From: Chitinophagaceae bacterium
GTDB taxonomy: Bacteria; Bacteroidota; Bacteroidia; Chitinophagales; Chitinophagaceae
Length of the DNA stretch: 36,397 bases
NCBI GenBank assembly: GCA_013140985.1
Contig: JABFRU010000036.1
Span: 1-36,397 of the forward strand
Direction of reading: 5' to 3'
Shown here piece by piece: positions 22,807-25,617 of this stretch (position 1 is its first letter; every line of letters starts with the position of its first letter). A program made the position numbers and the translations under genes. The notes beneath the pieces are model-generated. The model worked only from the letters and a program-made list of their open reading frames with translations. It did no database searches and was not told the origin of the DNA.

Positions 22807-23784
22807 ATGGAAGAACAAATTTTTCAACAACGCACCGACTTGTCAGCTTTAAATGAGGCCGTCATGTCTATCAGGAATGAGATCAAAAAGATCATTGTGG
22901 GGCAGGATGAGATGGTAAAGCTTATCATTACTGCTTTGCTGGCAGATGGTCATGTGTTGATAGAAGGCGTACCCGGTGTTGCAAAGACTTTGACCGCAAA
23001 GCTAGTGGCGAAAAGTGTAAATGCAGGTTTCTCCCGCATACAATTTACTCCCGATCTGATGCCATCTGATGTACTGGGTACACCAGTATTCAATCCAAAG
23101 GAGGCCATTTTTGAATTCAAGAAAGGTCCTGTTTTCAGCAATATTGTATTAGTGGATGAGATCAACAGGGCCCCTGCAAAAACACAGTCTGCATTGCTGG
23201 AAGTGATGGAAGAAAGACAGGCAACAGTGGATGGAAGAACATACCCTATGTCTGCTCCTTTCATGGTGCTGGCTACTCAAAACCCGGTGGAGCAGGAGGG
23301 AACCTATCGGTTGCCCGAAGCACAACTGGATCGTTTTCTTTTTAAAATAGTTGTTCCTTATCCCAGCGAGACGGAGGAAGGAACAATTCTCAGCCAATTC
23401 CATAACATGGGCAATACAGTTCCGTTGGATATGATAAAGCCGGCTTTGCAGGCACAACAGATCATTGCATTGCGGCAGCAGATCAAAACACAAATAATAG
23501 AAGAAAGACTGTTACATTTTATCGCCAAACTCATTCATCAAACAAGAAATCACAAGTCCATTTACCTGGGTGCATCACCAAGGGCATCACTGGCAGTAAT
23601 GAATGCATCAAAAGCATTGGCTGCCATGCAGGGAAGAGATTTTGTTACGCCGGAAGATATCCTGGGGGTAGTGCCATCTGTACTTCGTCACCGTATCATT
23701 CTTTCTCCCGATAAAGAGATGGAAGGTGTGACCGAGGATGATGTGATAAAACAAATAATACAAAGTATGGATGTGCCGAGGTAA
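22807..23784 (+). CDS. MoxR family AAA+ ATPase
   Basis: A 325-residue cytoplasmic ATPase. Walker A GVPGVAKT lies at 54-61, Walker B VLVDEI near 114-119 in NIVLVDEINRAPAKTQSALL, and the family signature ATQNPVEQEGTYRLPEAQLD in the middle. A C-terminal lid includes ASPRASLAVMNASKALAAMQ and VLRHRIILS. MoxR proteins act as chaperone-like ATPases that mature or insert partner proteins, often with von Willebrand A proteins. DUF58 proteins, encoded just after here, are vWA-related. ATG at 22807 is the only ATG start in the five-gene operon. A four-helix-bundle insertion separates it from the DUF58 gene by 507 bases. Confidence 0.95.
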   Translation: MEEQIFQQRTDLSALNEAVMSIRNEIKKIIVGQDEMVKLIITALLADGHVLIEGVPGVAKTLTAKLVAKSVNAGFSRIQFTPDLMPSDVLGTPVFNPKEAIFEFKKGPVFSNIVLVDEINRAPAKTQSALLEVMEERQATVDGRTYPMSAPFMVLATQNPVEQEGTYRLPEAQLDRFLFKIVVPYPSETEEGTILSQFHNMGNTVPLDMIKPALQAQQIIALRQQIKTQIIEERLLHFIAKLIHQTRNHKSIYLGASPRASLAVMNASKALAAMQGRDFVTPEDILGVVPSVLRHRIILSPDKEMEGVTEDDVIKQIIQSMDVPR

Positions 23785-24280
23785 GCAAGAAATAAATATT
23801 CAATAATCAATTTTTAATAATCAACGCTCAAGTATAAAACCAGCAATCTTTTAAATATGGCAACTAGAGTGTATGATCTTGAAGAAAGACTTATTGAATT
23901 TGGGACAAGAATTGTTGATGTGGTTGAATCATTGCCTAATAAAAGAGCTGGTAATTATATTGCCGGGCATTTGATCCGTTGTGGACTGGCACCGCCATTG
24001 CTTTATGGAGAGGCACAGGCATCAGAATCTTCTGATGATTTTATTCACAAGATGAAAGTTGTCCTTAAAGAATTAAAAGAGGCCAGGGTTTGTTTGAAAT
24101 TGATCATTCGCAAAGAGATGATAAAGCCTGTTAAGCGGCTTGACAGCGTAAATAATGAATGCGACAGCTAATAAAAATAATAGCTGCCAGCATCGAAACA
24201 GCTAAGAAGAATAAAAGGAAGCCTGGTGCTTGACTTGTTTATTGATTTATTGGGTATTGAATATTGAATATTTTCTAAAA
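23785..24280. mobile_element. Inverted-repeat-bounded cassette carrying a four-helix-bundle gene
   Basis: The spacer between moxR and its usual partner DUF58 holds an AT-rich imperfect inverted repeat around a small gene. The core arms 23794-23811 (AAATATTCAATAATCAAT) and 24256-24273 (complement, one mismatch) are extended inward by matches such as AATAATCAA/AATAAATCAA, TCAAG and CCAG up to about 23850 and back to 24212. No target-site duplication was found. No transposase is present, so mobility is inferred from position (interrupting a conserved gene pair) and from the inverted-repeat architecture. Confidence 0.55.
23857..24171 (+). CDS. Four-helix-bundle protein, S23 / 23S rRNA intervening-sequence protein family
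   Basis: A 104-residue helical protein. Motifs of the family (TIGR02436-type) are the N-terminal helix YDLEERLIEFGTRIVDVVES, SLPNKRAGNYIAGHLIRCGL with the basic turn, the EAQASESSDDFIHKMKVVLK segment and ELKEARVCLKLIIR. The founder proteins are encoded inside intervening sequences of 23S rRNA genes, where they lie in hairpin extensions. The diversity-generating retroelement protein Avd has the same fold and binds nucleic acid. Here the gene is inside an inverted repeat between moxR and DUF58. The start is ATG at 23857. Its function is unknown. Confidence 0.85.
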   Translation: MATRVYDLEERLIEFGTRIVDVVESLPNKRAGNYIAGHLIRCGLAPPLLYGEAQASESSDDFIHKMKVVLKELKEARVCLKLIIRKEMIKPVKRLDSVNNECDS

Positions 24281-24291
24281 CCTATAACAGA

Positions 24292-25617
24292 TTGATAAGG
24301 TCATTTTATCTAAACAACATCTTCTATTACATCACTGGTTCTGCAGCAGTAGTGTTTGTGCTGAGTTATTTTTTCCCGGCATGGTTTCGCATAGGTGGTG
24401 TGATCCTTCTTTTATTGCTGATGGCTGTTATTATAGATGCGATACTGGTGTACAGCAAAAAAAACGGGATCAAAGGTGAACGGATGGTGAATGAAAGATT
24501 CAGTATTGGCGATCCAAACAAAGTAGTGCTAGTCTTTGAGAATCGCTATTTATTTCCTGTACGTATCAGTATCATTGACGAATTACCCGTACAATTCCAG
24601 GATAGAAAATGGATGCGAAAAACAAAACTCGAAAGAACGTCCGGCTATCAGCTTGAATATTTTTTACAACCTACCACCCGGGGCGAGTATATTTTCAATG
24701 ATATTAATATCTATGTTCATGCTCCATTGCAGTTGGTAAAACGGAGATACACTTTCCCGGCACAGCAAACGGTGAAGGTGTATCCTTCCTATGTGCAAAT
24801 GAGGCGTTACCAGTTATTGGCCGTCAGCAACAGGTTGCAGGAAGCAGGTGTAAAACGCATAAGAAGAGTAGGGCATAGCATGGAATTTGAGCATATAAAG
24901 GAATATGTGCGGGGCGATGATTATCGTATCATCAACTGGAAAGCCACCGCAAGGAAGGACAACCTGATGGTGAACAATTATACGGATGAACGAAGCCAGC
25001 AGATATATTGCCTGATCAATAAGGGAAGAGTAATGAAGATGCCCTTTGATGGAATGACATTATTGGACTATGCTATTAATGCGTCGCTGGTGCTAGCCAA
25101 TGTGGCTTTGGTGAAGCAGGATAAGGCCGGCGTCATCACCTTTGAAAAAAATATTGACTCATTTGTGCTGGCCGATAAAAAGACCACGCAAATGAATTTG
25201 GTGCTGGAAGCCTTGTACAGGCAGAAGACAGAATTTTTAGAACCTGATTTCGAAAAACTTTTTTCTGTTATTCGTAACAGGATCACCAACCGGAGCCTGC
25301 TGGTATTATTCACCAATTTTGAATCGCTGGAAAGTTTGCAGCGGGAAATGACGGCACTGAAAAAAATTGCACACTATCATTTGTTGCTGGTAGTATTTTT
25401 TGAGAATACTGAACTCAGGTCGGTGATCGGGAAAAAAGCAGATACACTGGAAGATATCTATATCAAAACAATTGCAGAGAAATTTGCTTACGAAAAAAGG
25501 CTGATGGTAAAAGAGCTGCACAAAAACGGCATTCCTTCCATTCTTACTACTCCTGAAAATCTTACAGTAAATACGATAAACAAGTATTTGGAATTGAAAA
25601 CAAGGATGTCTATTTAA
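24292..25617 (+). CDS. DUF58 domain-containing membrane protein
   Basis: A 441-residue protein with TTG start at 24292. It has two adjacent transmembrane helices (about 10-50: YYITGSAAVVFVLSYFF and IGGVILLLLLMAVIIDAIL), then a beta domain, then the DUF58 signature GHSMEFEHIKEYVRGDDYRI followed by INWKATARKDNLMVNNYTDE near 198-235, and a vWA-like C-terminal domain (SLLVLFTNFESLESL). DUF58 proteins are paired with MoxR ATPases and thought to be their clients. In this genome a four-helix-bundle cassette separates the two. A GTCCGGAAG-type inverted repeat begins right after the stop codon. Confidence 0.9.
   Translation: MIRSFYLNNIFYYITGSAAVVFVLSYFFPAWFRIGGVILLLLLMAVIIDAILVYSKKNGIKGERMVNERFSIGDPNKVVLVFENRYLFPVRISIIDELPVQFQDRKWMRKTKLERTSGYQLEYFLQPTTRGEYIFNDINIYVHAPLQLVKRRYTFPAQQTVKVYPSYVQMRRYQLLAVSNRLQEAGVKRIRRVGHSMEFEHIKEYVRGDDYRIINWKATARKDNLMVNNYTDERSQQIYCLINKGRVMKMPFDGMTLLDYAINASLVLANVALVKQDKAGVITFEKNIDSFVLADKKTTQMNLVLEALYRQKTEFLEPDFEKLFSVIRNRITNRSLLVLFTNFESLESLQREMTALKKIAHYHLLLVVFFENTELRSVIGKKADTLEDIYIKTIAEKFAYEKRLMVKELHKNGIPSILTTPENLTVNTINKYLELKTRMSI

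What the first reader, a model, noticed from the sequence alone, without database searches (positions are those of the whole stretch)
23785..24291. Four-helix-bundle (S23) gene inside an inverted repeat splitting a moxR-DUF58 operon
moxR and DUF58 genes are normally adjacent. Here they are 507 bases apart, and the gap holds an S23-type four-helix-bundle gene between AT-rich inverted arms (core 18 bases, 17 matching, with partial pairing reaching the gene on both sides). S23 proteins were first known from hairpin insertions in 23S rRNA genes, so a gene-plus-hairpin cassette outside rRNA suggests that this protein family may travel with, bind, or process its own stem structure. If transcribed with the operon, the whole insertion would fold into one large hairpin between moxR and DUF58.
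Basis: partly seen in the sequence, partly recalled or inferred. Interest (0 to 1): 0.72.

Follow-up and report, generated by a model that had tools for sequence, protein, structure and literature searches.

The report
Mobile gene in heptamer hairpin arms
The small gene between moxR and DUF58 looks like one copy of a widespread jumping cassette: a ring-protein gene between mirror-image rows of 7-8-letter repeats, whose repeat "word" goes with the protein's subfamily and also lies scattered without the gene, which may explain heptamer repeats long left unexplained in bacteria.

Summary
Observation confirmed: an S23/four-helix-bundle (4HB) gene between inverted arms (17/18 core) splits moxR-DUF58. 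Each arm is about five degenerate heptamers. The window gene is frameshifted near codon 101; its orthologue in G014 is intact. Of 22 genus genomes with both genes, 4 carry a 4HB cassette there (three types, each with its own arms) and 18 do not; three have a bare TAAATGA overlap. In the genus 106 of 125 tested 4HB genes have inverted arms beating shuffles. Arm words differ between copies but keep a 7-nt (8-nt in one subfamily) period and track protein subfamily and strand, also at unrelated sites and, for one subfamily, across phyla. Gene-less hairpins and solo arms with the same words occur in 4HB-bearing genomes; none were seen in 240 kb of four 4HB-free relatives. Cyanobacterial plasmids carry the same cassette, with empty sites in relatives (86-97% flank identity at the clear sites). 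The own genome lacks reverse transcriptase; RAYTs have other repeats. Best reading: a mobile element whose S23/Avd-fold, presumably pentameric, protein recognises its own arms. Binding and movement chemistry are inferred. S23-bearing 23S rRNA intervening sequences may be its rRNA-resident form.

The parts
22807..23784 (+). moxR-type AAA ATPase gene; left target gene, not part of the element
   Evidence: AAA_3 E 1.7e-63; ends VPR-stop as in relatives
23794..23833 (+). 5' arm; five heptads at 23799-23833: TTCAATA ATCAATT TTTAATA ATCAACG CTCAAGT
23857..24171 (+). S23/4HB gene, 104 aa in frame; single-base frameshift near codon 101 relative to the intact orthologue L024, so the last helix runs on in another frame to about 24230
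   Evidence: TIGR02436 49.5 bits; comparison with L024; predicted fold of L024
24233..24273 (-). 3' arm, the inverted partner: about five heptads of the same CAATNNN type read on the minus strand, with one extra base (units read by eye)
24292..25617 (+). DUF58 gene; right target gene, not part of the element
   Evidence: DUF58 E 7.6e-16

Best explanation
The insertion is one (here probably dead) copy of a large family of small mobile elements. An element is a single S23/Avd-fold four-helix-bundle gene between two inverted arrays of about 4-5 degenerate 7-nt (in some subfamilies 8-nt) repeats. SHOWN by sequence: cassette structure, periodic copy-specific arms, presence in some and absence in other relatives at otherwise tight junctions, presence/absence between related plasmids (86-97% flank identity at the clear sites), subfamily- and strand-specific arm words, and same-word gene-less hairpins and solo arms in the same genome. 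INFERRED: the 4HB protein forms a pentameric ring that binds the C-poor strand of an arm (as single-stranded DNA or RNA), roughly one repeat unit per subunit, and this recognition lets the cassette in cis, and gene-less arms in trans, be copied or inserted elsewhere. Catalysis is borrowed from host replication or repair, since the cassette has no known enzyme. It works like a RAYT/REPIN system with a ring-shaped binder instead of a Y1 transposase. The rRNA intervening sequences that encode S23 look like the same element resident in rRNA.
For: Inverted arms at 106 of 125 testable genus loci (126 of the 144 TIGR02436 matches were fetched, one too short). 0 of 600 random positions reach score 17; 99 of the 106 arm-positive loci do. 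Lag-7 autocorrelation .578 vs .332 shuffled, z 32.5; of lags 4-15 only 8 and 14 also stand out. Arm similarity falls with protein distance at sites without flank similarity: close pairs .140 vs .061 permuted, maximum of 2000 permutations .083; opposite strand at background. GTTKA at least twice in 36 of 48 arms of one subfamily (several phyla), 0 of 24 of the window's; [CG]AAT in 4 of 48 and 15 of 24. Three different cassettes and bare sites at moxR-DUF58. Empty sites on cyanobacterial plasmids. 15 of 16 gene-less arrays in 393 kb of the own genome match an own-genome 4HB arm at cosine 0.4 or more. No period-7 array in 240 kb of four 4HB-free genomes, against 18 in 393 kb of the own genome, two of these 18 being arms of a 4HB gene. 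Fold matches S23 2rld/2gsc, then weakly Avd 8ub7/4dwl. An S23 protein is a homopentamer (PMC4990558 passage).
Against: No movement, binding or expression was observed. Co-variation of arm and protein is partly expected if both are simply inherited together; it does not by itself prove recognition. No fixed target duplication: 3, 10-11, or none, with 7-42 nt unmatched at several sites. 19 of 125 genus loci, 26 of 77 named loci, 5 of 29 class loci and 1 of 11 cyanobacterial loci do not beat all shuffles; among the named ones the failures include loci labelled Pirellula, Akkermansiaceae, Verrucomicrobia and Planctomycetota (L300, L314, L324, L334). The 15-of-16 array match had no permuted control, and arms from other genomes match about as well in many cases. 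Unit number is 4-5; the estimator overstates and cannot prove five, and one subfamily sits nearer 4. The 4HB-free genomes sampled are smaller. The window copy is frameshifted. The Coxiella S23 ORF is reported as probably not translated in vivo (PMC4990558 abstract passage).
Confidence: 0.66

Rival explanations
1. RNA-level rival: the 4HB protein binds the heptad hairpin only in RNA (autoregulation, protection or processing of its transcript, as rRNA IVSs are cut by RNase III), and cassettes are spread by some unrelated process.
For: S23 hairpins in rRNA are cut from RNA by RNase III (PMC4990558 passages); fold weakly resembles Avd, which sits in a ribonucleoprotein (8ub7 title); arms often lie between stop and start codons.
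Against: Does not explain why gene-less arms of the same word are scattered and were not seen in sampled 4HB-free relatives. DNA and RNA recognition are not exclusive.
Confidence: 0.3
2. Heptad arrays are an independent genome feature (polymerase slippage or hot spots), and 4HB genes merely land in or between them.
For: Heptamers are over-represented in many bacteria (PMC4692102 and PMC4679880 passages); arm words at shared sites can differ wholly between species.
Against: Arm word tracks protein subfamily at unrelated sites and, for one subfamily, across phyla, strand-specifically; no array in 240 kb of 4HB-free relatives; the clear plasmid insertions span about arm to arm, roughly 400-500 nt.
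Confidence: 0.09
3. The cassette is a passenger (MITE-like) moved by a known enzyme in trans: reverse transcriptase, Y1/RAYT or another transposase.
For: All 18 genus genomes with a Y1 match (17 over the cut-off) have 4HB genes and none of the 12 4HB-free ones has Y1. Avd works with a reverse transcriptase (recalled; 8ub7 title).
Against: No RT in the own genome nor in the 4HB-rich G021, G047, G053, G052, G014; RT in 6 of 42. 12 genomes have 4HB without Y1, one (G041) with nine copies. 0 of 20 Y1 loci have heptad arms at the gene; several have GC-rich repeats of their own. Genome size confounds the co-occurrence. Other transposases were not tested.
Confidence: 0.2
4. A resident autoregulated gene with a long terminator hairpin, vertically inherited and lost in some species.
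For: G000 and G014 share the orthologous cassette at moxR-DUF58.
Against: Three different cassettes at one junction, opposite orientations at shared sites, presence/absence between related plasmids.
Confidence: 0.03

Closest known systems
S23-encoding intervening sequences (IVS) of 23S rRNA (Coxiella, Leptospira)
   Same: S23 ORF in a long hairpin of about 430 nt; Coxiella's has a 28-bp terminal stem and tandem heptamers GACAGAT upstream of the ORF (PMC4990558 passages)
   Different: Ours lie between protein genes, in many copies per genome, with copy-specific arms and gene-less relatives; no rRNA excision tested. The paper reports the mobile-element idea as one hypothesis among several.
RAYT / REP / REPIN (system recalled)
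   Same: One gene between inverted repeats, the same repeats dispersed as singles and as gene-less inverted pairs
   Different: RAYTs are Y1 transposases; here the protein is a 4HB without a known catalytic domain and arms are low-C heptads. Y1 genes of the genus show no heptad arms, several have GC-rich repeats.
Cyanobacterial STRR heptamers; Xanthomonas GGGAATC and Nostoc GGGGA(T/C)T arrays
   Same: 7-nt units; in xanthomonads mostly four units, many as convergent inverted pairs; STRRs form hairpins (PMC4692102, PMC2670836 passages)
   Different: Not tied to a gene in the passages I read; PMC4692102 generally found no association with known mobile elements. Here heptad arrays flank 4HB genes at 10 of 11 tested cyanobacterial plasmid loci.
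Beggiatoaceae TAACTGA repeats
   Same: Heptamers just upstream of start codons; also in cyanobacteria and Bacteroidetes (PMC4679880 passages)
   Different: No 4HB link in the passages read ('four helix' and 'S23' do not occur in the main text); not tested here.
Avd of diversity-generating retroelements
   Same: Similar fold (8ub7, 4dwl)
   Different: No RT in the genome; the Foldseek match is weak (E 0.1); template/variable repeats not searched for.

Membership tests
S23 / four-helix-bundle protein family (TIGR02436, PF05635) | Score over curated cut-off | tested here: met
   TIGR02436 49.5 vs 24 bits; but PF05635 28.1 vs 33.8, below its cut-off
S23 / four-helix-bundle protein family (TIGR02436, PF05635) | S23 fold | tested here: met
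   Intact orthologue L024 modelled, pLDDT 89.8, four helices; 2rld TM .79/.90. The window's own frameshifted protein was not modelled.
S23 / four-helix-bundle protein family (TIGR02436, PF05635) | Homopentamer | not testable with these tools
   Stated for X. campestris S23p (PMC4990558 passage); 2gsc and 2rld each list five chains
23S rRNA intervening sequence (IVS) | Lies inside an rRNA gene | tested here: not met
   Lies between moxR and DUF58; Rfam scan of 23600-24500 gives no family over gathering score
23S rRNA intervening sequence (IVS) | S23 ORF within a long terminal hairpin | tested here: met
23S rRNA intervening sequence (IVS) | Cut out of RNA by RNase III | not testable with these tools
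   needs RNA data
RAYT/REPIN | Y1 (HUH) transposase gene | tested here: not met
   Gene is 4HB; Y1 loci of the genus have no heptad arms at the gene, 0 of 20
RAYT/REPIN | Same repeats as singles and inverted pairs elsewhere in the genome | tested here: met
Diversity-generating retroelement | Reverse transcriptase | tested here: not met
   No RVT_1 in the own genome; 6 of 42 genus genomes have one
Classical IS / MITE | Fixed-length target duplication | tested here: inconclusive
   Overlaps of 3, 10-11 or none at six plasmid sites
Classical IS / MITE | Conserved terminal inverted repeat shared by copies | tested here: not met
   Arms copy-specific; arm score median 10 between loci vs 22 within, 45 loci

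The most novel reading that the evidence does not exclude
S23/4HB proteins are the specificity factors of a previously unrecognised, phylum-spanning class of mobile element. A pentameric ring reads about five heptads of its own arm, one per subunit, and without any enzyme of its own makes those arms multiply as cassettes, gene-less hairpins and solo arrays. The classic heptamer repeats (cyanobacterial STRRs, Xanthomonas GGGAATC arrays) and S23-bearing rRNA intervening sequences are all its products.
Probability: 0.35. Interest if true: 0.95.

Novelty: categorically new. Interest (0 to 1): 0.86.

Why it matters
It gives a function hypothesis to a protein family that has solved structures but, as PMC4990558 puts it (passage), no known function, and links it to heptamer hairpins reported as unexplained (PMC2670836, PMC4692102 passages). 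It predicts a code: protein subfamily to core word and 7- or 8-nt spacing, testable with one binding assay. It suggests a kind of mobile element whose only gene is a ring protein without a known enzyme activity. It also warns that S23 genes found inside CRISPR or other operons may be hitchhikers: a CRISPR survey's figure legend lists '23S rRNA IVP' (PMC10910872 passage), and here the gene sits between cas6 and cas4 and between cas10 and a cmr3-family gene.

Tried and rejected
Reverse-transcriptase-driven movement: no RT in the genome or the 4HB-rich relatives named above. Y1/RAYT-driven movement: 20 Y1 loci read, none with heptad arms at the gene; one (L422) has a heptad array over 1 kb away. 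Known RNA family: none over gathering score; the only hit with E up to 1 is a chance one. 'Exactly five repeats': the first histogram peaked at 5.0-5.5, but simulation shows the estimator adds about 0.6-1 unit, so 4-5 is all I claim. A solo arm 'inserted' in valS of G021: the loop has the same length as in many relatives, so it may be native and is not counted as an insertion; other relatives (L220-L222) do show in-frame heptad hairpins there, by eye. Concerted evolution of arms: within-locus arm score 23.3 vs 15.6 between same-site relatives, 48 of 54 pairs, but the within score is a maximum by construction and independent insertions are not excluded, so it is only suggestive. A scan hit in G021 that was a run of N was discounted. 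No heptad array was found in the window by a 35-nt scan at 75%; that strict scan also misses the window's own degenerate arms. Fetched but not tested: 19 loci (L368-L386), L064 (same gene as L011), L437 (near-duplicate of L436). Searches list 30 plasmid rows; 12 were fetched, all cyanobacterial; the Riemerella rows were not fetched.

Full report
WHAT IS IN THE WINDOW. moxR (22807-23784) and DUF58 (24292-25617) are separated by 507 nt holding an S23/four-helix-bundle (4HB) ORF at 23857-24171. Inverted arms lie at 23794-23820 and 24247-24273 (27 nt, 81%) and beat all 200 dinucleotide shuffles (22 vs at most 17). The whole gap folds at z -3.1. The 5' arm is five heptads, TTCAATA ATCAATT TTTAATA ATCAACG CTCAAGT (23799-23833); the 3' arm is the inverted counterpart. 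Against the intact orthologue L024 in G014, the window gene carries a single-base frameshift near codon 101 and loses its last helix in frame, so this copy is probably inactive unless it is an assembly error.

THE SITE IN RELATIVES. In 22 genomes of the genus (own included) both genes were found and the junction was read, or for G051 only measured from coordinates. Four carry a 4HB gene: the window genome G000 and G014 share one; G021, the closest by DUF58 (86%), has a different 4HB gene with GAAGTCG-type arms; G053 has a third with GTTGATG-type arms. Eighteen have none. In G044, G045 and G050 the genes overlap as TAAATGA, which I take as the bare site. By eye, G041 keeps a shrunken hairpin with a remnant that resembles the G053 gene's end, and G043 keeps a 5' array only. 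So at least three different cassettes have occupied one junction.

THE FAMILY IN THE GENUS. The own genome has 17 TIGR02436 matches and 30 of 42 genus genomes have some. I fetched 126 of the 144 matches counted (29 genomes, 19 with matches); the other 18 were mostly fragments, interrupted copies or close to contig ends. One of the 126 was too short to test. 106 of 125 have an inverted pair that beats 100 of 100 shuffles; 19 do not. As a control, none of 600 random positions in 393 kb of the own genome reaches score 17, while 99 of the 106 positives do. Arm sequences are copy-specific: median score 22 within a locus, 10 between loci, in the first 45 loci. What they share is a period: identity at lag 7 is .578 against .332 in shuffles (z 32.5), lag 14 z 23.4, lag 8 z 10.0; the other lags from 4 to 15 are at or below background. 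The 5' arm is C-poor on the gene strand (C 7.7%, G 27.8%). There are about 4-5 units per arm: median estimate 5.3, with an upward bias of about 0.6-1 unit by simulation; the paired part has median length 35 nt.

ARM WORD GOES WITH PROTEIN. Among the 106 positives, over pairs of loci without flank similarity, 5-mer similarity of arms falls with protein tree distance.378 (10 pairs).158.116.076, then .058 to .026. Close pairs (under 1.5) average .140, against .061 with arms permuted and a maximum of .083 in 2000 permutations; similarity on the opposite strand stays at background. Flanks were compared over at most 1.25 kb a side, so some shared sites may be missed, and gene and arms inherited together would give part of this. 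The window's subfamily (L016, L024, L147, L149) has CAATNNN heptads at three different sites. Searched with alignment A3, this subfamily occurs in 72 of 395 class genomes, own included; of 29 tested loci outside the window, 24 have inverted arms, strictly period 7 (z 19.0; lag 8 z -0.3). Nineteen more fetched were not tested. A different subfamily (alignment A2), searched in named genomes, gave 80 loci, three of them from the window's genus (L257, L258, L261, by matching contigs); 51 of 77 testable have inverted arms, and the 48 outside the genus show period 8 (z 21.0; lag 7 z 3.4). Positives include loci labelled Acidobacteria, Desulfuromonadales, Cloacimonadota, Pirellulales, Patescibacteria and Aliifodinibius; L300 (Pirellula), L314 (Akkermansiaceae), L324 (Verrucomicrobia) and L334 (Planctomycetota) are negative. 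The core word GTTKA occurs at least twice in 36 of the 48 arms (3 of 48 for its reverse complement), but in 0 of 24 arms of the window's subfamily; [CG]AAT occurs in 4 of 48 and 15 of 24. So word, strand and spacing behave as subfamily traits over great distances.

ARMS WITHOUT THE GENE. A search with the window DNA hit its arms alone elsewhere. L188 (own genome) is a gene-less hairpin with a 6-nt loop; L189, L190, L192, L194-L196 and L198 look like solo arms, several between a stop and a start codon (by eye). In 393 kb of the own genome there are 18 period-7 arrays and 0-3 in total at each of periods 5, 6, 8, 9 and 10. Two of the 18 are the arms of L008. Of the other 16, 15 match the arms of an own-genome 4HB gene at cosine 0.4 or more, six above .75; no permuted control was run, and the same subfamilies' arms from other genomes often match as well. 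In 240 kb from four 4HB-free relatives (G019, G015, G002, G010) there are no period-7 arrays; G042 has 7 in 40 kb and G021 3 in 120 kb after discounting a run of N. The 4HB-free genomes are smaller (1.7-2.6 Mb), which confounds the comparison.

CYANOBACTERIA AND EMPTY SITES. Of the 30 plasmid rows listed I fetched 12, all cyanobacterial, and tested 11. Ten lie between inverted heptads that beat 100 of 100 shuffles, such as TAGGGAG repeats between nrdB and nrdA in Nostoc edaphicum and AGGTGAC repeats between cas6 and cas4 in Anabaena sp. 90; L429 ties. Relatives lack the insert (aligned; flank identity 86-97% at the clear sites). In Nostoc ATCC 53789 pNsp_c about 500 nt sit in a TAATG stop/start overlap that is intact in two Nostoc C052 plasmids (about 93%). 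In pNsp_a 406-408 nt are flanked by an imperfect 10-11 nt duplication by comparison with two of the four empty plasmids; against the other two, 7 nt are unmatched. Picosynechococcus 7003 has the cassette at the end of cas10 where 7002 has a short gap. Nostoc C052 and N. edaphicum carry a cassette at a TraM site that is empty in two Nostoc C057 plasmids (36-42 nt unmatched there) and in pNsp_c holds what looks like a decayed gene-less heptad pair. The nrd site differs by 494 nt from Calothrix. The cas6-cas4 comparison is too rearranged to place ends. No fixed target duplication emerges.

WHAT THE PROTEIN IS. The intact orthologue is modelled as four helices (pLDDT 89.8) and matches S23 structures 2rld (TM .79/.90) and 2gsc, then, weakly (E 0.1), DGR Avd (8ub7, 4dwl). 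PMC4990558 (passages read) states that X. campestris S23p is a toroidal homopentamer, that the Coxiella IVS has a 28-bp terminal stem and tandem heptamers GACAGAT upstream of its S23 ORF, that IVSs are excised by RNase III, and that a mobile-element origin has been one hypothesis.

HOW IT MOST LIKELY WORKS. The simplest account of word-protein matching is that each 4HB protein recognises its own arm. A ring of five small subunits binding about five short, low-C repeats recalls how TRAP binds spaced triplets (recalled, not looked up). Because the same words spread without the gene, and were not found in 4HB-free samples, I infer that recognition promotes copying or insertion of arms in cis and in trans. 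The cassette holds no known enzyme, the genome no reverse transcriptase, and Y1 genes of the genus have no heptad arms, so catalysis is assigned to host replication or repair, without direct evidence. An RNA-only role remains the strongest rival.

LITERATURE. Ten searches of the held library (one search was rejected) listed no paper that, by title and abstract start, ties S23/4HB genes to dispersed heptad hairpins; the lists were cut (15 of 26, 12 of 36, 12 of 199). Heptamers themselves are known: PMC4692102 (passages) counts 186 and 183 GGGAATC arrays in two xanthomonads, mostly four units, 70 and 75 cases as convergent pairs, generally not with known mobile elements; PMC2670836 (passages) calls STRR hairpins of unknown function; PMC4679880 (passages) describes TAACTGA repeats. 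Most subscription papers and all bioRxiv preprints are outside the library, so absence from print is not established. On rechecking I lowered the main confidence slightly (.68 to .66) because the array match lacked a permuted control and the plasmid pairs are related rather than near-identical; for the same reason the slippage rival went from .08 to .09.

Noticed in passing
L049-L052 (G042, G003, G007, G009): A second moxR-DUF58-like site in the genus also carries 4HB cassettes in four genomes; listed protein identities 57-70%, arms different except that L051 and L052 are alike.
   Followed up: partly
L220, L221, L222 (valS of G003, G047, G009): In-frame gene-less heptad hairpins appear to sit in a variable loop of valyl-tRNA synthetase, of at least two word types (by eye).
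   Followed up: partly
L070 vs L072; L063/L067 vs L074; L057/L062 vs L076: The same region carries 4HB cassettes in opposite orientations in different relatives: inversion across the arms or separate insertions.
   Followed up: no
L428, L429 (cyanobacterial plasmids): 4HB genes lie inside CRISPR operons (cas6-cas4; cas10-cmr3 family), a possible source of false CRISPR-association signals for '23S rRNA IVP'.
   Followed up: partly
L342, L346, L351, L354: Arms share a GAACAAGGATTAACGATTT-like string across three bacterial families, hinting at recent transfer.
   Followed up: no
L367 (G000:C43 end): A second gene of the window's wider subfamily, cut by a contig end, with AAATNAG-type 3' arm; several gene-less arrays on C24 match this type.
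   Followed up: partly
L407, L413, L421, L422: Y1/RAYT genes of the genus lie between GC-rich inverted repeats without heptads, apparently a separate REP system.
   Followed up: no
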